A stretch of 42,364 bases of DNA from Deltaproteobacteria bacterium. Its GTDB lineage: Bacteria > Desulfobacterota > Binatia > UBA9968. The stretch's first letter is position 1, and each line of letters begins with the position of its first letter. Made by a program: the position numbers and the translations under genes. The stretch is taken from contig JACPAM010000122.1 of assembly GCA_016180805.1 (NCBI GenBank), forward strand, positions 1 to 42,364, given 5' to 3'. The notes beneath the pieces were generated by a model. It was not told where the DNA came from. It saw nothing but the letters and a program-made list of their open reading frames with translations, and searched no databases. Positions 1,804 through 18,748 of this stretch are shown one piece after another.

Positions 1804-2665
1804 TTAGAGAATCTCGCCTGCCATCAGCATCTCCGCCAGCGTCGCCGTCAGCGGCAGCCCCGTCAGGTCCTCGATCCAGCCAAACTGCCCGCTGGGATTG
1901 TTCTCAAGAAAAACATAGCGGCCATCCGGTGTTAATATCATGTCTAGGGCGCTGAATGCGACCCCGAAATACTCCGAGAACTTCAAGCACTTTTCCTCGA
2001 TATCCCGAGGCAACCGATGGGCGAAATGGGGCAACTCCTCCATGTCCACTGCACGCCAATCGTGTCTCGCCTGAGGATGGTCTTGGGAATGGATCTCTGC
2101 GGCCAAAACCTTGCGGCCGATGACGGTAATACGAAGCTCGAGCCTTTTCGGGATATATTCCTGGAAAATTCCGGGCGCGTTCCTGATTAAATGAACGTTA
2201 TCGAGGTGCTCCCTAGATATAGGCGTAGTCAGCAGTCCCTTACCGGACCCTCCAAAAAAAGGCGAGCTGCAAGGCCTTGGAGGAGGCGACGCGAATCTTA
2301 TCCGGATGGTTGACCCAGAACCAATCTGCAATCCGAAACAGGCCGTGAAAGGCGGATCTGAGCTCGCCCCGGGCGAACTCTCTCTCGTCTTCGGATAAGG
2401 TCGGCGGCAGCAGGAAGGGGGTCGGCCTGCGGTACCACACGCTCCGTATACTCCTCAGGTCTATCGCTTCGCCATTAAGCCGAATGGAACCCTCGATACT
2501 TTCCCGCTCGAGCCGCAGCGTGACGGACGAATGCAGCGGGAATGAGTCGGCGTGCCAGCGAATGAAGTCGGCGCCCCTTCGGCGCAGCTCCACCACCATC
2601 ACATCGGCATGGGGATCGATCTCCTGGGTGATGATGAGGATCTTTTTTTGTGTTTGCCCAGACAT
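1804..2665 (-). pseudogene. MvdD/MvdC-like ATP-grasp peptide ligase, internally deleted and frameshifted
   Basis: Two reading frames together make one ATP-grasp protein of the family that forms omega-ester or omega-amide crosslinks in graspetides such as microviridins. The first half (ATG 2665, to about 2260) has the pre-ATP-grasp part: KKILIITQEIDPHADVM, the signature VWYRRPTPFLLPP, and NHPDKIRVASSKALQLA. The second half (from about 2265 to 1804) has GKGLLTTPIS, QEYIPKRLELRITVIGRKVL, and the Mg/ATP-binding end LDMILTPDGRYVFLENNPSGQFGW. Family members carry about 40 residues between LQLA and this second half, including the nucleotide-binding lysine. Here that segment is missing and the frame shifts next to a run of seven A (on the + strand near 2257). 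The product is probably inactive unless the assembly is wrong. It follows the precursor-like gene by 38 bp. Confidence 0.75.
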
Positions 2666-2703: not shown

Positions 2704-3159
2704 CTAATCATCGCTGATCGTATCGGATTCCCTGTCCGTGATGATCGGGCAGCAGCCGGTCGTCCTCAGGGAGGTCAGCGTGCAGGAAGTCGCTTTGCCC
2801 CTCGTCTTGATCGCTGAGTCCAGATGCTTCTTTAAATCTCCAGAGGAAATGAACGTATCTTTTCCCAGGAGGTCCGAAAGGTCCTTTTCCGAGAGAGCCT
2901 TCTCGCCCGACTTCGTCTGGGCGGCAACGAACATGGGCTGCCTCGTTTGGGCATCAAAATAGAGCTGCGATTCCGGATCGTAATAGCCGGGCGGGATCTG
3001 AAGCCGCGGCGTGTCCTGCAAAAAGAGACCCGCAAACACGCCGGCGTTCGCATGACTGCTCTCTCTTCTGAAAACAGGCCAGGCCACCAGCCCGAGCGCC
3101 GTCATGCCGAGGCACTTTAGAAAGCCCCTCCGGTTATCCCTGTTTTTTTCCTCCTTCAT
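2704..3159 (-). CDS. Tat-signal small protein, candidate graspetide-type precursor
   Basis: A 151-residue protein with a good Shine-Dalgarno (AGAAAGGA) before its ATG. It begins with a twin-arginine-like signal (NRRGFLKCLGMTALGLVAWPVF, residues 9-30, consensus RRGFLK), so export in folded form by Tat is likely. The middle (residues about 45-110) is hydrophilic, with PPGYYDPESQLYFDAQTRQP. The C-terminus has three cysteines (SCTLTSLRTTGCCPII) and ends TDRESDTISDD, where Thr/Ser residues alternate with Asp/Glu. That tail has the donor/acceptor layout of graspetide core peptides, and the next gene downstream is an MvdD-like ATP-grasp ligase. The precursor role is inference from those two facts. 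A large Tat-type leader would be unusual for a graspetide, and a non-modified Cys-rich exported protein is the main alternative. I do not recognise the family. Confidence 0.6.
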   Translation of the reverse strand: MKEEKNRDNRRGFLKCLGMTALGLVAWPVFRRESSHANAGVFAGLFLQDTPRLQIPPGYYDPESQLYFDAQTRQPMFVAAQTKSGEKALSEKDLSDLLGKDTFISSGDLKKHLDSAIKTRGKATSCTLTSLRTTGCCPIITDRESDTISDD

Positions 3160-5066: not shown

Positions 5067-5966
5067 CTAAGAGACTTCGCTGACGACAAGAATCCCATCT
5101 TTCATCACGCGAACCTTTATTTCTGCCGGCGTCTCCTTCCTGGATTCGACCCGGGTCTGAAGGCCGTGCTGGATCTCGATTTCAGTCACAGTCTCAAAGG
5201 GCATCTGTGGAGCCGCCTTTCTGAGAAGCGCCACAAGCTGCGCGCGGGATGCGTTGGTCTTTTCCCTCTCATAAGCGAGCAGACCACTTCTGAGCTCGGG
5301 AGTGAGCGCTATATTGCTCTCCGCTACAACTGTTTCTCCGGTGCCAAACGCAAAACCTTGGGGTCCCTGAGTCCGGGTGGCCCTCGGATGATCCGGTGTC
5401 TTTTGCTCCTCAAGATATTGCGGAAGGGCCATCAGAAGGGCGATGACTAAAACGGCGCAGGTGCCGACCCCCGCCAGGGCCCATCGCGGATGCGATACAA
5501 GAGGCTCCATCCACTTCCGGGCCCCTTCTTGAATCCGATAGCCAAGGCCTATCCACAAGGATGGCTTCGGAGATCCTGCCAAATTCACTGCTTGCTTAAG
5601 GAGATGAGAAGGGGTAAGCCGATAATTATCCGATAATGTCCGCGAGCGATCCGCGTCGATGAACTGATGCAAACAGGATGGACAGCGAACGAGATGCTCC
5701 TCCAAGCGCTCCCGCTCCTCGGCCGAAAGGACGCCATCCAGATAACCGGCCAACACCGTGGCATCCGGGCACTCTTGGCTCGGGACCCCGCGGCGAGTCT
5801 CGGTCTGGACGACCCTTTGCACGGCCTCATCCAGGATCTTGAGAGATTCCACCTCCCCGCGGCATTGCACGCATCCCTGAAGATGGCGGCGCACCTCTTG
5901 CATTTCACCCGGTGTCCCGTCCTCGTAAACAAAACGAGTCAGGATCTGGCTTTCGGGGCAAGGCAT
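5067..5966 (-). CDS. Membrane anti-sigma factor with two zinc-finger modules
   Basis: A 299-residue protein with two anti-sigma zinc-finger modules of H-x3-C-x2-C type: RRHLQGCVQC (about residues 26-35) and EEHLVRCPSC (about 90-99). One membrane segment (WALAGVGTCAVLVIALLMAL, about 161-180) is followed by a C-terminal domain of about 115 residues on the far side of the membrane, with no recognised family. This is the standard layout of an anti-sigma factor holding an ECF-type sigma at the membrane. The sigma gene lies directly upstream, with 19 bp between its stop and this ATG. A copy of the 12-base motif CTGTCCGTCTAA overlaps that stop codon, so this gene probably has its own promoter read by the same sigma. 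The downstream M48 protease could act on it, but that is inference. Confidence 0.85.
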   Translation of the reverse strand: MPCPESQILTRFVYEDGTPGEMQEVRRHLQGCVQCRGEVESLKILDEAVQRVVQTETRRGVPSQECPDATVLAGYLDGVLSAEERERLEEHLVRCPSCLHQFIDADRSRTLSDNYRLTPSHLLKQAVNLAGSPKPSLWIGLGYRIQEGARKWMEPLVSHPRWALAGVGTCAVLVIALLMALPQYLEEQKTPDHPRATRTQGPQGFAFGTGETVVAESNIALTPELRSGLLAYEREKTNASRAQLVALLRKAAPQMPFETVTEIEIQHGLQTRVESRKETPAEIKVRVMKDGILVVSEVS

Positions 5967-5985
5967 TTAGGAGTCCCTTCTCCTT

Positions 5986-5997
5986 TTAGACGGACAG
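5986..5997 (-). promoter_or_regulatory. Regulon motif CTGTCCGTCTAA before anti-sigma gene
   Basis: The minus-strand 12-mer CTGTCCGTCTAA overlaps the stop codon of the sigma gene and lies 19 bases before the anti-sigma ATG. It is identical to the copy at 7227-7238. The CGTC core is typical of -10 elements used by ECF-type sigma factors. An A-run (GGGAAAAC) lies about 10 bases upstream, but I see no clear GGAAC-type -35 element. Confidence 0.6.
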
Positions 5998-7077
5998 ATA
6001 CTGGGTTTTCCCAATTCCCCTGGCCTTCAGTGCCGTTCTCAAGTATGAAATCGCTTCTTGACGTATCCTGTAGATTTCTCTATCCGAGCGCCGCATCAGG
6101 TGCGCGATATCCTGGGGCGACATCGGAGGATTCGTGTAAAATCTCAGACGGACATAAAGGCCCAATTCCGCGGGCAGCTCATCCACCACCTGTTTGAGAA
6201 CTGAAAAGCCTTTCTCCAGCGACCGCTCATCCTCTGCGGCGAACAATACGGTCTCAGGGCAGTAGGTAAAATCGGGGACCTCCCATTCTTTGCCACCGCC
6301 CTGTCCGTCTTCCAAACCCAGAGAGTATTCCATGCCGGGTCTGCCGCTAGGCGAAAGCTGTCGTTTTCGCCCCGACACTGCCTCCCTTACTTGTGCCAGT
6401 GCCTGTTCGATGCGGCTTTGCGGATAACGATTCCCGCTCTCATCGCGCAAGACCTCGGAAAGATATTTTTCGCTGCACGCATTCCAGTAAATTTGCCGAT
6501 AAACTTCCTGCTCCAATGGGGGGAGCTGAAGGACGGCTTCAGGAAGGCGCCTACGGCCCTTCGATTTTCTGCGAAGATCCAAACAAAGATTGTGGATGGT
6601 TGTGAGAATATATCCGGTGAAGCTCCCGCGTCCCGCGTAGCTTAAGATCCGGCGAAAGCCATCTTCAATCAAAAGGACACGGATGTCCTGCAAAAGATCC
6701 TGGCTTTCCCTCGCAACTGCCTTAAACTCCTTTTCAAAAAAGCGCTCAAAGGCTCTCCAGGCGCGATCGGTATCTTCCTTGAAGAGCTCCAAAATCCGGC
6801 CCGCCAGCAAATCTCGGATTTTTATCGTGAGAAAGGTAGAAAGGGACGCGCGTCCATTGAAGGCGCGGAGAACGGAGAAGTCGTCGGCTCGAAGGAGGCG
6901 GACAACGTTGAGGTATTCCGCTTCCAGCTCGCGGTTGGAAAAAGCCAGGGAACAGAGCGAATAGATGAGATCGCTGTAGCGGTGTACGAATTCCTCCCAG
7001 GCCCCCTGCTCTCCCCTGATCAGGTTCTGAATCAGGGCGAGGTCAACGCTCCTCTCGTAGCCTTCCCTGACATTCAT
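5986..7077 (-). CDS. Sigma-70-family factor with two region-2-like modules
   Basis: A 363-residue protein. Residues about 12-95 look like sigma region 2 (LIRGEQGAWEEFVHRYSDLIYSL ... FNGRASLSTFLTIKIRDLLAGR). Residues about 110-185 repeat that pattern (LLQDIRVLLIEDGFRRILSY ... RGSFTGYILTTIHNLCLDLRR), and residues about 295-355 look like region 4 (MSPQDIAHLMRRSDREIYRIRQEAISYLR). Usual ECF factors have one region 2 and about 180-200 residues, so this one is long and carries an apparent duplication. The gene starts a minus-strand series with its cognate anti-sigma. A strong housekeeping-type promoter lies upstream (7130-7157), so it is probably made constitutively and controlled by the anti-sigma. 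Family call is good; which copy of region 2 binds the -10 element is unknown. Confidence 0.8.
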   Translation of the reverse strand: MNVREGYERSVDLALIQNLIRGEQGAWEEFVHRYSDLIYSLCSLAFSNRELEAEYLNVVRLLRADDFSVLRAFNGRASLSTFLTIKIRDLLAGRILELFKEDTDRAWRAFERFFEKEFKAVARESQDLLQDIRVLLIEDGFRRILSYAGRGSFTGYILTTIHNLCLDLRRKSKGRRRLPEAVLQLPPLEQEVYRQIYWNACSEKYLSEVLRDESGNRYPQSRIEQALAQVREAVSGRKRQLSPSGRPGMEYSLGLEDGQGGGKEWEVPDFTYCPETVLFAAEDERSLEKGFSVLKQVVDELPAELGLYVRLRFYTNPPMSPQDIAHLMRRSDREIYRIRQEAISYLRTALKARGIGKTQYLSV

Positions 7078-10237: not shown

Positions 10238-10897
10238 ATGCGTGACAAAGTCATTGTGACCATTTTTTTGATTGCATCTTTCGGCGCCTCGTCTGTTTAC
10301 TCGGACTCCTGGACGCTCCCGGAAACCAGAACATATTACTCCGAGAATACGGAGTTTCGTTTCACCGTGATTCCTCGGAGCCTGAGAAGCCAGCTCCACT
10401 TTTTCTCTGACAAAGTCGAAGGCCGAGAGCCGGCCGGAGCCCTTCCCGGGGGGCAGCTATTCTGCTTGGGAATTCTGTCCAGGAAGAAGGCCGATGGTTC
10501 CTATGAGCCGGTCTGGCAAGGCGCGCTGACCAACGATGTCTCTCCGGTGAGCGCGATCCTTTCTTCTTCGGGTGAATATGTGGTGACGTTCGACAACTGG
10601 CATTCCATGGGGTACGGGAAAAACGCCATCGTGATTTACGGCCCTGGGGGAAATCTGATCCGCGAACTTGCCCTGACAGATTTGATGCCGCAGGAGGAGG
10701 TGGCGAGATTGCCTCGCAGCGTCAGCTCCATCTGGTGGGGGCGGGACCATCAGATAGATAAAAGCGGAAAGTTTTTGATTGTAAAGATTTTCGCCGACAA
10801 AAATTCGCGATTCGATAGGAACCCTGAGTTCCGCATGCTCTACATCGAGCTGGCCAGCGGAAGAATTTTCAGCCCAGATGAGGTCCCCGAAGTATGA
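10238..10897 (+). CDS. Exported 'DSW' protein, paralogue A, unknown function
   Basis: A 219-residue protein with a signal peptide (VIVTIFLIASFGASSVYS, mature start DSWTLPETRTYYSENTEFRF). It is about 60-70% identical by eye to the protein at 13355-14050. Shared blocks are FRFTVIPR.LRSQL, FSDKV.GR.PAG.LPGG, SGEYVVTFDNWHSMGYG, LPR.VSSIWWGR and the end LYIELASGRIF. The pattern of short beta-like blocks with a central FDNWHSMGYG suggests a secreted beta-rich, possibly propeller-like fold; I cannot assign a family. It is the second gene of block A (9797, 10238, 10985), which is repeated in block B. It has no own regulon motif, so it may be read from the promoter before 9797. Confidence 0.65.
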   Translation: MRDKVIVTIFLIASFGASSVYSDSWTLPETRTYYSENTEFRFTVIPRSLRSQLHFFSDKVEGREPAGALPGGQLFCLGILSRKKADGSYEPVWQGALTNDVSPVSAILSSSGEYVVTFDNWHSMGYGKNAIVIYGPGGNLIRELALTDLMPQEEVARLPRSVSSIWWGRDHQIDKSGKFLIVKIFADKNSRFDRNPEFRMLYIELASGRIFSPDEVPEV

Positions 10898-13009: not shown

Positions 13010-13312
13010 ATGCTGGATAACGAACCTATGAAGCGAGTAATGATGATCGGAACGTCAGCTCTACTTCTTTGTGTGTTTTTAGCAGCCTCCAGCCTCGCGG
13101 CCGACGTCCCGGGGACCAGACACAAGGGCAGCAGCGTGCAGGAACCTCCCGCACCTTCAAGGCCGGGAAATCCCTTCCCTCGCAACCCCGATCCGCCACT
13201 GAAAAACCCGTTAAGGGACGACAGCAGGGACCTTAATCCCCAAAACGACCCTGACGTGAGGAAGGGTATCCAGGACCACTATCGGGAATACTTGAGGAGG
13301 CAAGGGCGTTAA
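13010..13312 (+). CDS. Small exported Pro-rich protein ('ADVPGT' family)
   Basis: A 100-residue protein with a signal peptide (MIGTSALLLCVFLAASSLAADVPGT). AAAGGAGAAAGCC precedes ATG 13010; a second ATG at 13028 is possible. The mature part is Pro/Arg/Asn-rich: EPPAPSRPGNPFPRNPDPPL, then KNPLRDDSRDLNP and NDPDVRKGIQDHYREYLRRQ. A paralogue with nearly the same mature sequence lies at 18056-18313. The conserved end (PDV..GIQ.HYREYL.RQ) suggests a short helix. No named family. It lies within the motif-driven block B series. Confidence 0.7.
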   Translation: MLDNEPMKRVMMIGTSALLLCVFLAASSLAADVPGTRHKGSSVQEPPAPSRPGNPFPRNPDPPLKNPLRDDSRDLNPQNDPDVRKGIQDHYREYLRRQGR

Positions 13313-13354: not shown

Positions 13355-14050
13355 ATGATCCACTCGGGCTTACCCAAAATAGGAATGTCGCGCCACCTGC
13401 AGCTCCATCACTGGAGCCTGTTTCTGGTTTTGGTTGTTGCCCTGCTGCTCCCTCCTGCCCCCGCTTATGCAGATAGCTGGGCTCTTCCGGTCACGCGGGA
13501 CTACTTTTCGGAAAATAGAGACTTCCGCTTCACCGTGATCCCTAGAGAATTGAGGAGCCAGCTCGGCTACTTCTCGGACAAGGTGACGGGACGCGATCCG
13601 GCCGGGCAACTCCCGGGTGGGGCATTGGCCGCTACGGGCATTCTATCCAGAAGGAGGGCCGATGGTTCTTACAATCCGGTTTGGCAAAAAACATTGAGCA
13701 ATGATGTGGCCCCAGTAAGCGCGATCGTTTCTCCATCTGGCGAATACGTGGTCACCTTCGACAACTGGCATTCTATGGGCTATGGGAGGAATGTCGTGGT
13801 CATTTATGGTCCGGACGGCATGGTCATCCGAGAATTTGGCTTGAACGATCTGCTATCGACAGACGAGACCGAAAGACTTCCCCGCACGGTAAGCTCAATC
13901 TGGTGGGGAAGAGGTCATCACTTTGATGAGAGCGGGAAATTCCTGGTCCTGCGCATAGCTGCGAACCGAAAGATGCCCAGCGATAGGGACGCTCAGTTCC
14001 GCCTACTCCACATCGAGCTGGCGACAGGGAGAGTTCTAACAACGGGGTGA
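13355..14050 (+). CDS. Exported 'DSW' protein, paralogue B
   Basis: A 231-residue protein with a signal peptide (LFLVLVVALLLPPAPAYA, mature start DSWALPVTRDYFSENRDFRF). It is clearly paralogous to 10238-10897 along its full length, with the same blocks FRFTVIPRELRSQLGYFSDKV, SGEYVVTFDNWHSMGYGRN and LPRTVSSIWWGRGHH. The two copies differ mainly in the signal peptide and C-terminus. AAAGGAGATACC lies before the ATG. A 33-base scrap of a third copy follows at 14091-14123. Function unknown. Confidence 0.68.
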   Translation: MIHSGLPKIGMSRHLQLHHWSLFLVLVVALLLPPAPAYADSWALPVTRDYFSENRDFRFTVIPRELRSQLGYFSDKVTGRDPAGQLPGGALAATGILSRRRADGSYNPVWQKTLSNDVAPVSAIVSPSGEYVVTFDNWHSMGYGRNVVVIYGPDGMVIREFGLNDLLSTDETERLPRTVSSIWWGRGHHFDESGKFLVLRIAANRKMPSDRDAQFRLLHIELATGRVLTTG

Positions 14051-14090
14051 GCTTCGAATGGCGCATACTTTGCGCTAGGGTCTCCTTGCC

Positions 14091-14123
14091 TTTGACAACT
14101 GGCACCCGCTGGGCTATGGGAGG
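14091..14123 (+). pseudogene. Scrap of a third DSW-family copy
   Basis: These 33 bases encode FDNWHPLGYGR, matching the hallmark FDNWHSMGYGR of the neighbouring gene (13760-13792 region) with most bases identical. No other part of the gene surrounds it. It is a recombination footprint from the family duplications. Confidence 0.55.
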
Positions 14124-14163
14124 ACAATTGACTTGAGGCGGCGCCGCTCGGGATGGAATAGAA

Positions 14164-14454
14164 GTGTTAGAAATAGTGGTTCTCGTTCTGATCGTTGTTG
14201 CCATCGCCGGTCTTGTTTTTCTGGCTCCAGTCTATCTCCGTAAAGGAAGAGGGCAGCCGGAGGCATCGCGCAAGGCGCAAACCGAGCTTCCTACCTGCGA
14301 CGAAGTCCAGCAGATCGAGATCTCTCACGATTCCAGCAATGCTGGTCCCTATGAACCTCCGACATCCGACTACCCACCCACCGTGAGCACGAAGGACTTT
14401 ATCGCCTCTTTCGGCAAGCTTTGGGAACAGTCCGCAGCGAGCCGGCAGGATTAA
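14164..14454 (+). CDS. Membrane-anchor protein, possibly the N-terminus of the AAA+ gene
   Basis: A 96-residue frame (GTG start at 14164) with one N-terminal membrane helix (VVLVLIVVAIAGLVFLAPVYL), a basic stop-transfer (RKGRG) and a soluble polar tail ending DFIASFGKLWEQSAASRQD. Its TAA stop at 14452-14454 is in the same frame as the AAA+ gene that follows. The bases after the stop encode AVDLDVLAAALSQLESKLRD, leading straight into the first Walker A region. This could be a separate anchor protein translated with its neighbour, or one gene split by a nonsense change. A decayed copy of the membrane segment lies at 10985. Confidence 0.55.
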   Translation: MLEIVVLVLIVVAIAGLVFLAPVYLRKGRGQPEASRKAQTELPTCDEVQQIEISHDSSNAGPYEPPTSDYPPTVSTKDFIASFGKLWEQSAASRQD

Positions 14455-14493
14455 GCTGTTGACCTAGACGTACTCGCTGCCGCTCTGAGCCAA

Positions 14494-17043
14494 TTGGAGT
14501 CCAAGTTGCGAGACGCACAATCGGTGCTGCTGGTAGGCAATCCCGGCGTGGGAAAGACCACGCTCATTCGCGCCTTAGGACAACGGCTCCTCGGGGAGGG
14601 TTGGATAGTTTTCGAAGCCAGCGCCGCAGACGTTCTGGCAGGGCAGATCTACATAGGCCAGATCGAAGAGCGGGTGCAAACCATCGCGCGGACTCTCGGC
14701 GGCCACAAGATTCTCTGGATCGTCGAGAATTTTAGCGAGCTGCTCTGGTCCGGGCGGCACCAGTTCAACCCCCAAGGCCTGCTTGGCCTCTTGCTTCCCC
14801 ACCTGGCGGATCGGACGATTCGATTGGTAGGCGAGTGCCGTCCGGACACCTATCATGCGCTCATTGAGATGCAGCCGAAAGTCGGCTCCGCCCTCGCCGC
14901 TTACCGAATGTCCCCCCTCAGCGACGAGGCGACCCTTAGCCTGGGAAGTTTCTGGGCAGCTCAACACCGCCTTTCGGATGGAGCGGAATTCGTCACTCCA
15001 TCGGTCATACGGGAGGCGCTTCATCTGGTGAAGCACTATCTTTCTGCCAAGGCCGCCCCTGGAAACCTGCTCGATTTTCTCAAACTCGTCCGCCATAGAC
15101 CCATCGAAGAGAGGGGACCCGCTCTATCTCGTGTGTCTCCGGATGACCTGCTCGCGGCGCTTTCCCACCTGACGGGCTTGCCCCGAAGTATGCTCGACGA
15201 GCGCACGACTCTCGATCTCGAGAACCTGCGCCGCTTCTTCAATCAGCGGGTTCTCGGCCAGCCCGAGGCAGTGGAGTGTCTCGTTGAACGCCTCGCGATG
15301 ATCAAAGCGGGATTGACCGACCCGACGCGGCCGCAGGGAGTCTTTCTCTTCGTAGGACCGACCGGAACCGGCAAGACCGAAATCGCCAAGGCGCTCGCGG
15401 AATTCTTGTTCGGCTCCTCTAGCCGGATGATCCGCCTCGACATGAGCGAGTTCCAATTGCCCGAATCGCTGGACCGACTCGTCGGCAATGGCGGCACGGC
15501 CCTCGTCGACGCCATCTGCAAGCAGCCATTTTCAGTAATCTTGCTGGATGAGTTCGAGAAATCTCACCCGCGCGTCTGGGATCTCTTCTTGCAGCTCTTC
15601 GACGACGGCCGGCTGACCGACCGTCATGGTCGGACGGCCGACTTCCGTCACTCGATTGCGATCATGACTTCGAACCTCGGGGCCGCCATTCCTCCGGGCA
15701 CCAACATCGGCTTTGCCCAGGGCAAGGGGACTTTCAACCCAGGCGGGGTCGAGCGGGCGGTCTCACAGATATTTCGAGCCGAATTCATAAATAGAATCGA
15801 TCGCATCGTTATTTTCCGGCCTCTGACTCAGAGCGTCATGCGGGAGCTACTGCAGAAAGAATTCACCGAGATCGTGGGACGGCGAGGTTTGCGCACGCGA
15901 CCCTGGGCCGTCGAGTGGGACCAATCAGCCATAGAATTTCTCATTGAAAAGGGTTTCACGCCAGATCTGGGCGCGCGTCCTCTCAAGCGGGCGATCGAGC
16001 GCTATGTGCTCGCGCCTTTGGCAATGGCGATCGTGAATCGGGAAGTGCCGCAAGGCGATCAGTTCTTGTTCATTCGCAGCAATGGCGAGCGCATAGAAGC
16101 GTGCTTCGTCAATCCGGATGAGCCTGAAAGCGAGCAGGCGGATACACCCGCTTTAACTCCAGCCTTTCAGCGGGTAGAGGAGCTGGTCCTTAACGCGTAT
16201 GGAACTCAAGAAGAGGTCGCGTTCTTAAAGGCCGAGTACGAACACTTGGTCGAGCAGCTTCGTGCGGACGAGTGGCAGAACCGCAAGCAGGCGGCGCTCC
16301 GCGAGATAGGGTCGCCCGGATTCTGGGATTTGCCTAATCGATACGGCGTTCTCGGCTTGGTCGAGTACATGGATCGGATCGAGGCGGGGCTTGAAACGGC
16401 AGGTTCCCTGCTTGGTCGCTTGACGCGATCCCGGCCCATATCACGGGGATCCCATATTCCGAAGGATCTGGTCCAGCATCTGGCCTGTCAAATCTATCTT
16501 CTGCGCGCCGCATATTCGGCTCTATTCGAAGGTCGACCGAGGGACGCTTTCCTGTCAGTAACGGCGCTGCGAGACGCGGGAGTGGACCGGGCTGCTAGCG
16601 ACGATTTCGCCCGGCGAATAGGGGTGATGTACAGGAACTGGGCCAAGGCCAGAAGGATGCGGTGCGAGGTTCTGGAAGAGGTAGAAGGCCAGGAATCAAC
16701 GCCGTATCGACTGGTCTTAGCCATTTCTGGCTTCGCGGCTTATTGTATCCTCGAGGCGGAATCAGGTTTGCACGTCCTTGAAACCTCGGAAAACGATGGG
16801 TCTTTAGGCCGCAGCCGGGCCCGGGTTTGCGTGGTGGCGCAACCCGATGAGCCGGCCCGGCTTGAAAACGGAAGCCTTCGCCGACAGGCAATAAGGGCCC
16901 TCGAACGGGATCGTGCTGCAAACAACGTGATTGTGAGGCGTTATCGATCGGATCCTTCTCCTCTCGTGCGTGATCGAGTGCGAGGATGGCGTACCGGCAG
17001 GCTGGATGACGTTTTGGACGGAAACTTCGACGTCATCCAATAG
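14494..17043 (+). CDS. Clp/Hsp100-like AAA+ ATPase fused to release-factor-2-like domain
   Basis: An 849-residue protein from the TTG at 14494; the frame is open back to 14455. The first ATPase module has Walker A GNPGVGKTT (15-23), but its Walker B reads ILWIVENF instead of the usual DE. The second has Walker A GPTGTGKTE (about 288-296), Walker B VILLDEFEK (about 347-355), sensor TSNLGA, and the ClpB D2 end GARPLKRAIERYVLAPLA. After about residue 560 the protein resembles RF2: a helical stretch with GSPGFWDLPNRYGVLGLVEYMDRIEAGLE, then LEAESGLHVLE, and at the end RRYRSDPSPLVRDRVRGWRTGRLDDVLDGNFD, like the RF2 tail. The GGQ motif and the stop-codon-recognition SPF motif are absent. An unfoldase acting near ribosomes is a guess. 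No Met start or good Shine-Dalgarno is visible. Confidence 0.8.
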   Translation: MESKLRDAQSVLLVGNPGVGKTTLIRALGQRLLGEGWIVFEASAADVLAGQIYIGQIEERVQTIARTLGGHKILWIVENFSELLWSGRHQFNPQGLLGLLLPHLADRTIRLVGECRPDTYHALIEMQPKVGSALAAYRMSPLSDEATLSLGSFWAAQHRLSDGAEFVTPSVIREALHLVKHYLSAKAAPGNLLDFLKLVRHRPIEERGPALSRVSPDDLLAALSHLTGLPRSMLDERTTLDLENLRRFFNQRVLGQPEAVECLVERLAMIKAGLTDPTRPQGVFLFVGPTGTGKTEIAKALAEFLFGSSSRMIRLDMSEFQLPESLDRLVGNGGTALVDAICKQPFSVILLDEFEKSHPRVWDLFLQLFDDGRLTDRHGRTADFRHSIAIMTSNLGAAIPPGTNIGFAQGKGTFNPGGVERAVSQIFRAEFINRIDRIVIFRPLTQSVMRELLQKEFTEIVGRRGLRTRPWAVEWDQSAIEFLIEKGFTPDLGARPLKRAIERYVLAPLAMAIVNREVPQGDQFLFIRSNGERIEACFVNPDEPESEQADTPALTPAFQRVEELVLNAYGTQEEVAFLKAEYEHLVEQLRADEWQNRKQAALREIGSPGFWDLPNRYGVLGLVEYMDRIEAGLETAGSLLGRLTRSRPISRGSHIPKDLVQHLACQIYLLRAAYSALFEGRPRDAFLSVTALRDAGVDRAASDDFARRIGVMYRNWAKARRMRCEVLEEVEGQESTPYRLVLAISGFAAYCILEAESGLHVLETSENDGSLGRSRARVCVVAQPDEPARLENGSLRRQAIRALERDRAANNVIVRRYRSDPSPLVRDRVRGWRTGRLDDVLDGNFDVIQ

Positions 17044-18055: not shown

Positions 18056-18313
18056 CTAATGCTGTCTTTCCAAATATTCCCTGTAATGACGCTGGATGCC
18101 CCGCTGCACATCAGGATCGTTTCTCGGATTCAAGTCGCGGTTGTAATCCCTCAACGGATTTTTCAATGGGGGATCGGGGTTGCGAGGGAAGGGGTTTCCA
18201 GGTCTGGAGGGCGGTGGGGGCTCTTGAGTACTTTTACCCCTCACGCGGGTCCTCGGCACATCGGCTGCAAAAGCGGCGTCGGAGAAGAGAGCAGCTGACA
18301 TGACGGCGATCAT
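18056..18313 (-). CDS. Small exported Pro-rich protein, paralogue of 13010 gene
   Basis: An 85-residue protein from ATG 18313: a signal peptide (MIAVMSAALFSDAAFA) and a mature part nearly identical to that at 13010-13312 (ADVPRTRVRGKSTQEPP, SRPGNPFPRNPDPPLKNPLR, NDPDVQRGIQRHYREYLERQ). There is no good Shine-Dalgarno at this ATG. The frame is open upstream and joins a CHAT-domain fragment to 18748, so the present sequence is formally a CHAT-to-exported-peptide fusion. I read it as a copy whose promoter and start region were replaced by recombination. Confidence 0.55.
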   Translation of the reverse strand: MIAVMSAALFSDAAFAADVPRTRVRGKSTQEPPPPSRPGNPFPRNPDPPLKNPLRDYNRDLNPRNDPDVQRGIQRHYREYLERQH

Positions 18314-18748
18314 CAAAAAGGGGTGCCGCTCCGCGCGGCCGGGGGTGAGGCCTCGAAACGTCGAGACATCGAGGTCGTGGTCCTTGAGGCGGATGAAGTA
18401 CTCCTCAAAGCCACCGGGCACGGCGCGTATCACGCCGTGCCGGGCGAAATGGATGATGCCCTCGGGGAGATTGCTGAAGACGCGGCGCAGGCCATCGAGC
18501 CGCCCCGGCACGCGCCGGAAGCCGGGCAGGCCTTGCAACGCAGCGAGCTCGGACTTCTGCCCTTCGAGCGCTTCGCGATCCGTGTACTGTGGGGCGATCA
18601 CAAATAGCTTTTTGAGCACCACGGCCCGCGGCACGCGCTCTAGCTGCATCGCGTCCTCGCTGATGTGCCAGCGAACCACCTGAAACTCCACACCGAGGAA
18701 ATCGCGCTCGGCTGAAACCCTAGGAACAAAGGCCCGAGAAGCCAGACG
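18314..18748 (-). pseudogene. CHAT-domain fragment fused to small exported protein frame
   Basis: The frame is open from 18748 with only a GTG (18691) as a possible start. It encodes a middle part of a CHAT domain: RAFVPRVSAERDFLGVEFQV, LKKLFVIAPQYTDREALEGQ, FSNLPEGIIHFARHGVIR (where GIIHFARHG matches the catalytic-His block hHFxxHG) and FIRLKDHDLDVSTFRGLTPG. The catalytic Cys block and the C-terminus are absent; the frame runs into the signal peptide of the 18056-18313 protein instead. It is a relic of a larger gene. Confidence 0.6.

What the first reader, a model, noticed from the sequence alone, without database searches (positions are those of the whole stretch)
14494..17043. Clp-like AAA+ protein fused to a release-factor-2-like region without GGQ
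After a complete Clp D2 module, residues about 560-849 match RF2 in order: a helical start with SPGFWDLPNRYGVLGLVEYMDRIE, LEAESGLHVLE in the middle, and the C-terminal RRYRSDP...VRDRVRGWRTGRLDDVLDGNFD. The catalytic GGQ and the codon-reading SPF are absent. An unfoldase carrying a ribosome-A-site-like domain could act on stalled ribosomes or nascent chains. The first AAA module has a degenerate Walker B (VEN), so only the second is likely to hydrolyse ATP.
Basis: partly seen in the sequence, partly recalled or inferred. Interest (0 to 1): 0.78.

Follow-up and report, generated by a model that had tools for sequence, protein, structure and literature searches.

The report
Clp ATPase fused to GGQ-less RF2
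A bacterial gene joins a protein-remodelling ATPase (Clp type) to a cut-down copy of release factor 2, the protein that ends protein synthesis, from which the part that cuts the new protein free is missing, so a termination factor seems to have been turned into a docking part of an ATP-driven machine; what it docks to is not known.

Summary
ORF 14494-17043 (849 aa) is a divergent two-ring Clp/Hsp100 ATPase (AAA_2 1e-40) followed by a release-factor-2-derived region: PCRF E=3.8e-7, prfB model 8e-10. An RF2 profile with the GGQ domain cut out scores 58.8 bits, against a best of 4.5 in 1000 shuffles. Domain 3 is deleted outright, all three codon-reading elements are lost, and RF2 domain 1 is weak by sequence. 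A model (pLDDT 78, made with RF2 rows in its alignment) matches E. coli RF2 at Z 18.9; without RF2 rows prediction failed. D1 lost its Walker B Asp and Arg finger; D2 keeps its ATPase motifs but lost the GYVG pore loop. New: an upstream ORF with a membrane helix lies in the same frame, split off by one TAA; a groundwater MAG has the same anchor joined directly to the RF2-like domain in one ORF, without Clp, dN/dS about 0.23. Among 148 genomes of the class and 395 sampled across the phylum only these two carry it. Most likely a membrane-tethered AAA+ remodeller with a catalytically dead RF2 module as docking part. Ribosome binding is plausible (Balon precedent) but unshown.

The parts
14164..14454 (+). 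upstream ORF (96 aa): one membrane helix (residues 2-20) with N-out/C-in charge pattern (inferred), acidic/Pro linker, SFGKLW motif; ends in TAA 14452-14454
   Evidence: aligns with the N-terminus of the G178 relative (score 60, best of 2000 shuffles 53)
14455..14493 (+). 13 codons between the TAA and the TTG start, open in the frame of both ORFs; sits where Clp proteins have the lead-in to D1
14494..17043 (+). main ORF: AAA+ D1 - AAA+ D2 - RF2-derived C-terminus, 849 aa
14515..15093 (+). D1 AAA+ module, degenerate: Walker A 14536-14559 intact, Walker B 14710-14733 with Asp to Val, aromatic pore loop 14641-14658 kept, Arg finger 14884-14904 lost
15124..16062 (+). D2 AAA+ module: Walker A 15355-15381, Walker B 15535-15561, sensor 1 15664-15681, Arg finger 15784-15804, sensor 2 15970-15990 intact; pore loop GYVG deleted at 15475-15504; IGF (ClpP-loop-like) 15703-15723
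16201..16530 (+). helical region resembling RF2 domain 1 (SPGFWD at 16312-16329)
   Evidence: (24 of 1000 shuffles); helices aligned to RF2 in the model
16540..16872 (+). RF2 domain 2 core (PCRF match 16594-16779); GGTE, SPF and RRHTSF codon-reading elements replaced
16873..17040 (+). short stretch in place of GGQ domain 3, then the RF2 domain 4 tail (RRYRSDPSPLVRDRV...VLDGNFD)

Best explanation
The gene encodes a divergent Clp/Hsp100-type AAA+ ATPase whose C-terminal domain descends from release factor 2 by clean loss of the GGQ domain and of the codon-reading elements; in the ancestral form it was probably tethered to the inner membrane by an N-terminal helix. Shown: domain content, homology to RF2, motif losses, same-frame upstream anchor, one relative in which anchor and RF2 domain are one polypeptide. 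Inferred: D2 hydrolyses ATP in a ring while D1 only binds nucleotide; the RF2-derived module is a docking domain, not an enzyme, that brings the ATPase ring to its target; that target is most likely a translation complex (stalled or hibernating ribosome, or a protein partner of release factors), so the machine would remodel or extract partners or nascent chains at the membrane, possibly handing them to ClpP through the IGF loop.
For: RF2 homology; fold match Z 18.9, rmsd 5.3 over 263 residues to E. coli RF2, Foldseek E 2.7e-13 to ribosome-bound RF2. D2 ATPase motifs kept, IGF loop kept; a full ClpP is present in the genome. Anchor plus RF2 domain in one ORF in G178, with purifying selection on the RF2 part, dN 0.38, dS 1.70. 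Precedent: Balon, an aeRF1-family protein without GGQ or NIKS, still binds the bacterial A site (PMC10901736).
Against: All elements that contact the stop codon are gone and so is domain 3, so A-site docking has no motif-level support. The G178 relative has no Clp part and lacks most of domain 1. D2 pore loop is deleted, which argues against threading. The in-frame TAA separates the anchor in this genome. The fusion is known from one MAG. No neighbouring gene points to translation.
Confidence: 0.42

Rival explanations
1. The RF2 fold has been exapted as a general protein-protein module with no link to the ribosome; the AAA+ ring acts as an ATP-driven switch or remodeller for a membrane client.
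For: Loss of GGTE, SPF, RRHTSF and domain 3; a Clp-less anchored form exists; neighbours are secreted proteins, M48 peptidases and a sigma/anti-sigma pair, none of them translation genes.
Against: The 2/4 superdomain is kept in full and recognisably RF2-like; the neighbour set is not shared with the relative's locus, so context is weak evidence.
Confidence: 0.36
2. A decaying or broken gene: the TAA splits anchor from ATPase, D1 is degenerate and D2 has lost its pore loop, so the reading frame is a remnant without a function; or the stop is an assembly error.
For: In-frame TAA at 14452; motif losses in D1 and the D2 pore loop; a remnant of the neighbouring secreted-protein gene at 14089-14124 and an ATP-grasp gene in two frames at 1804-2665 show disturbance in the contig.
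Against: 862 open codons without a stop, coding GC pattern throughout, D2 catalytic motifs all intact, dN/dS about 0.23 for the RF2 part against the G178 relative (dS near saturation, 81 codons).
Confidence: 0.17
3. An active or regulatory release factor: the region still terminates translation or stands in for RF2, since no prfB was found in this assembly.
For: No prfB above cut-off in the assembly while UGA stops are in use.
Against: No GGQ domain and no codon-reading elements; the assembly is only 91% complete, so prfB may simply be missing.
Confidence: 0.02

Closest known systems
Release factor 2 (prfB, TIGR00020; PCRF PF03462)
   Same: domain 2 core, domain 4 tail and, more weakly, domain 1, in order; predicted fold of the 2/4 superdomain
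   Different: GGQ domain 3 deleted, SPF, GGTE and RRHTSF replaced; C-terminal part of a much larger ATPase; 38 bits against a 370-bit cut-off
ClpA/ClpB/ClpC (Hsp100 class 1 AAA+)
   Same: two AAA modules, D2 Walker A/B, sensors, Arg finger, ClpB_D2-small; IGF loop as in ClpA
   Different: no Clp N-domain, no M-domain, degenerate D1, D2 pore loop deleted, RF2-like C-terminus, in-frame upstream membrane anchor; longest branch of the small Clp tree made here
Jumbo-phage Clp-like 'ATP-dependent protease' (phrog_4871)
   Same: best profile match to the D1-D2 part (455 bits, 8.8e-136)
   Different: about 30% identity, no RF2 domain in the matches
Balon hibernation factor (aeRF1 family)
   Same: release-factor homologue without GGQ and codon motif; works-like analogy only
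   Different: unrelated aeRF1 fold, keeps a middle domain reaching the peptidyl-transferase centre, no ATPase
PrfH / RFH
   Same: RF1/RF2 family member altered in its codon-reading region, without domain 1
   Different: keeps GGQ and domain 3, stand-alone, paired with an upstream gene (PMC1586002)

Membership tests
class-I bacterial release factor (RF2) | GGQ catalytic domain 3 | tested here: not met
   (domain 3 profile, 622 of 1000 shuffles as good)
class-I bacterial release factor (RF2) | codon-reading SPF, GGTE and RRHTSF elements | tested here: not met
class-I bacterial release factor (RF2) | 2/4 superdomain sequence and fold (PCRF) | tested here: met
   fold, with RF2 rows in the alignment
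class-I bacterial release factor (RF2) | domain 1 | tested here: inconclusive
   24 of 1000 shuffles; SPGFWD in register
Clp/Hsp100 class 1 AAA+ | two AAA+ modules with D2-small domain | tested here: met
Clp/Hsp100 class 1 AAA+ | hydrolysis-competent D1 (Walker B Asp-Glu, Arg finger) | tested here: not met
Clp/Hsp100 class 1 AAA+ | D2 pore loop 1 (GYVG) for threading | tested here: not met
ClpP-partner unfoldase | [LIVMP]-G-[FL] ClpP-docking loop and a ClpP in the genome | tested here: met
   IGF aligned with the LGF of ClpA; ClpP 4e-85
ClpP-partner unfoldase | physical binding to ClpP | not testable with these tools
   needs pull-down or a structure
ribosome A-site binding factor | binds ribosomes | not testable with these tools
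   needs co-sedimentation or cryo-EM

The most novel reading that the evidence does not exclude
A membrane-anchored AAA+ machine that uses a catalytically dead release factor 2 to recognise stalled or idle ribosomes and remodels, extracts or degrades what it finds there: a bacterial ribosome-associated quality-control system in which an RF2 derivative is the targeting part of a Clp ATPase.
Probability: 0.2. Interest if true: 0.85.

Novelty: new variant of a known kind. Interest (0 to 1): 0.6.

Why it matters
A release factor stripped of its catalytic domain and built into a Clp ATPase would link translation termination factors directly to ATP-driven protein quality control, which in bacteria is otherwise known through tmRNA tagging and RqcH tailing (own knowledge). 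Even if the ribosome is not the target, it is a rare case of the RF2 fold taking up another job, and the anchored Clp-free relative gives a small, testable version of the domain.

Tried and rejected
Scans of genome contigs with the C-terminus (none) and with a two-row alignment (only the G178 contig); of viral contigs (none); plasmids and phages by tblastn (only ordinary Clp and RF proteins, no fusion). Some of the longest Clp reading frames in other genomes of the phylum (826-1167 aa) were fetched and carry no RF2-like part. A structure prediction without RF2 rows gave pLDDT 41.5 and was not used. The Clp tree could not place the window's protein (end branch 6.16). PADLOC matches (DolB, 5e-29) cover only the AAA core and do not make it a defence protein. 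No paper describing a Clp-PCRF fusion was found in the open-access library; that library is partial and other phyla could not be searched with sensitive profiles, so absence elsewhere is not shown. The idea that the ORF is an assembly chimera of a ClpB and a working RF2 gene was rejected because the RF2 part is highly divergent, lacks domain 3 in a continuous frame and has its own relative in G178.

Full report
What was claimed.

Checking it. The ORF is there, 849 aa from a TTG start, ending in TAG. Pfam gives AAA_2 (1e-40), ClpB_D2-small (1.7e-14) and PCRF (3.8e-7, 30.5 bits against a cut-off of 24). NCBIfam gives ClpB and ClpA models for the front and prfB (8.2e-10, positions 115-191) for the back. 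A phmmer search of the PDB with the C-terminus returns RF2 of E. coli at 6e-9, aligned from domain 1 through domain 2. To test the blocks separately, 22 RF2 proteins from loci of the same phylum were aligned and split into domains. Domain 2 scored 43.8 bits and the domain 4 tail 15.3 bits, neither reached by any of 1000 shuffles; domain 1 scored 1.3 bits (24 of 1000 as good); the GGQ domain was no better than chance. The RF2 profile with domain 3 cut out scored 58.8 bits, the best shuffle 4.5, and the alignment runs through the place where domain 3 is missing. So the C-terminus derives from RF2 by deletion of domain 3. In the alignment the GGTE turn, SPF and RRHTSF have no counterpart in the window protein.

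Structure. AlphaFold2 with RF2 rows in the alignment gave pLDDT 78; Foldseek's 50 listed PDB matches are all release factors; VIA-align gives Z 18.9, rmsd 5.3 over 263 residues to free E. coli RF2, and Z 17-18 with rmsd 3.3-3.7 over about 145-155 residues of the 2/4 superdomain to several RF1/RF2 structures. The model is not independent, since RF2 rows were used; without them prediction failed (pLDDT 41.5). The fold is therefore supported mainly by sequence.

The ATPase part. Aligned with ClpA and ClpB of the same genome, D1 keeps Walker A and an aromatic pore residue, but the Walker B Asp is Val and the Arg finger is gone. D2 keeps Walker A, Walker B, sensor 1, Arg finger and sensor 2, but the pore loop GAPPGYVG is deleted. 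An IGF triplet stands where ClpA has its ClpP-docking loop. There is no Clp N-domain in the ORF and no M-domain. The protein has no close Clp relative (end branch 6.16); the best profile is a jumbo-phage Clp-like family, phrog_4871, 455 bits, at about 30% identity.

The gene is probably larger. Upstream, ORF 14164-14454 encodes a membrane helix (mean hydropathy 3.2 over 19 residues), a Pro-rich linker and SFGKLW, and ends in a TAA that is in the same frame as the AAA+ ORF; 13 codons separate the TAA from the TTG. In a groundwater MAG of the same phylum (G178, JACPFL010000052.1, labelled Deltaproteobacteria) a single ORF carries the same kind of anchor, linker and SFGRVW, joined directly to the RF2-like core (50-57% identical over the shared 81-106 residues) with no Clp part; it is cut by the contig end. 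The two N-termini align with score 60, above all of 2000 shuffles (45 without the helix, 11 of 2000). Over 81 codons dN is 0.38 and dS 1.70, so the RF2-like core has been under purifying selection since the two lines parted. This relative suggests that anchor and RF2 domain belong together and that the domain can be kept without the ATPase.

Distribution. Of 148 genomes of the class only the window's has the region; of 395 sampled from the phylum only the window's and G178's. The neighbouring secreted protein 13355-14050 is similarly rare and also present in G178, on another contig. The genome has ClpA, ClpB and ClpP and RF1, but no prfB above cut-off in an assembly that is 91% complete.

How it most likely works. 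The ATPase motifs point to a ring driven by D2. The RF2 part cannot be expected to hydrolyse peptidyl-tRNA or read stop codons, so it should act by binding. The simplest reading is a docking domain; the ancestral partner of the fold is the ribosome, and Balon shows that a release-factor homologue without its motifs can still sit in the A site. But the contacts that RF2 uses there are mostly gone here, and an exapted interaction module fits almost as well. The internal TAA and the D2 pore-loop loss leave decay as a real rival in this genome.

Verdict. A real, rare architecture with a well-supported origin and an open function.

Noticed in passing
1804-2665 (-), 2704-3159 (-): MvdD-type ATP-grasp ligase (PF21068) read in two overlapping frames, next to a small protein with a TAT-like leader ending CTLTSLRTTGCCPIITDRESDTISDD: possible graspetide cluster with a frameshift.
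   Followed up: partly
5067-7077 (-): zf-HC2 anti-sigma and a very divergent sigma factor (Sigma70_r2 only 0.0014) between two M48 peptidase genes.
   Followed up: partly
10238-10897 and 13355-14050 (+), 14089-14124: Paralogous secreted proteins (64% identical) without any family, plus a remnant of a third copy; relatives only in G178 (66%) and G387 (42%, with ankyrin-like repeats).
   Followed up: partly
13010-13312 (+) and 18056-18350 (-): Inverted copies of a small Pro-rich secreted protein flank the Clp-RF2 gene (198 nt, 72%).
   Followed up: no
whole assembly of the window's genome (G000): No prfB found although UGA stops are used; probably an assembly gap.
   Followed up: partly
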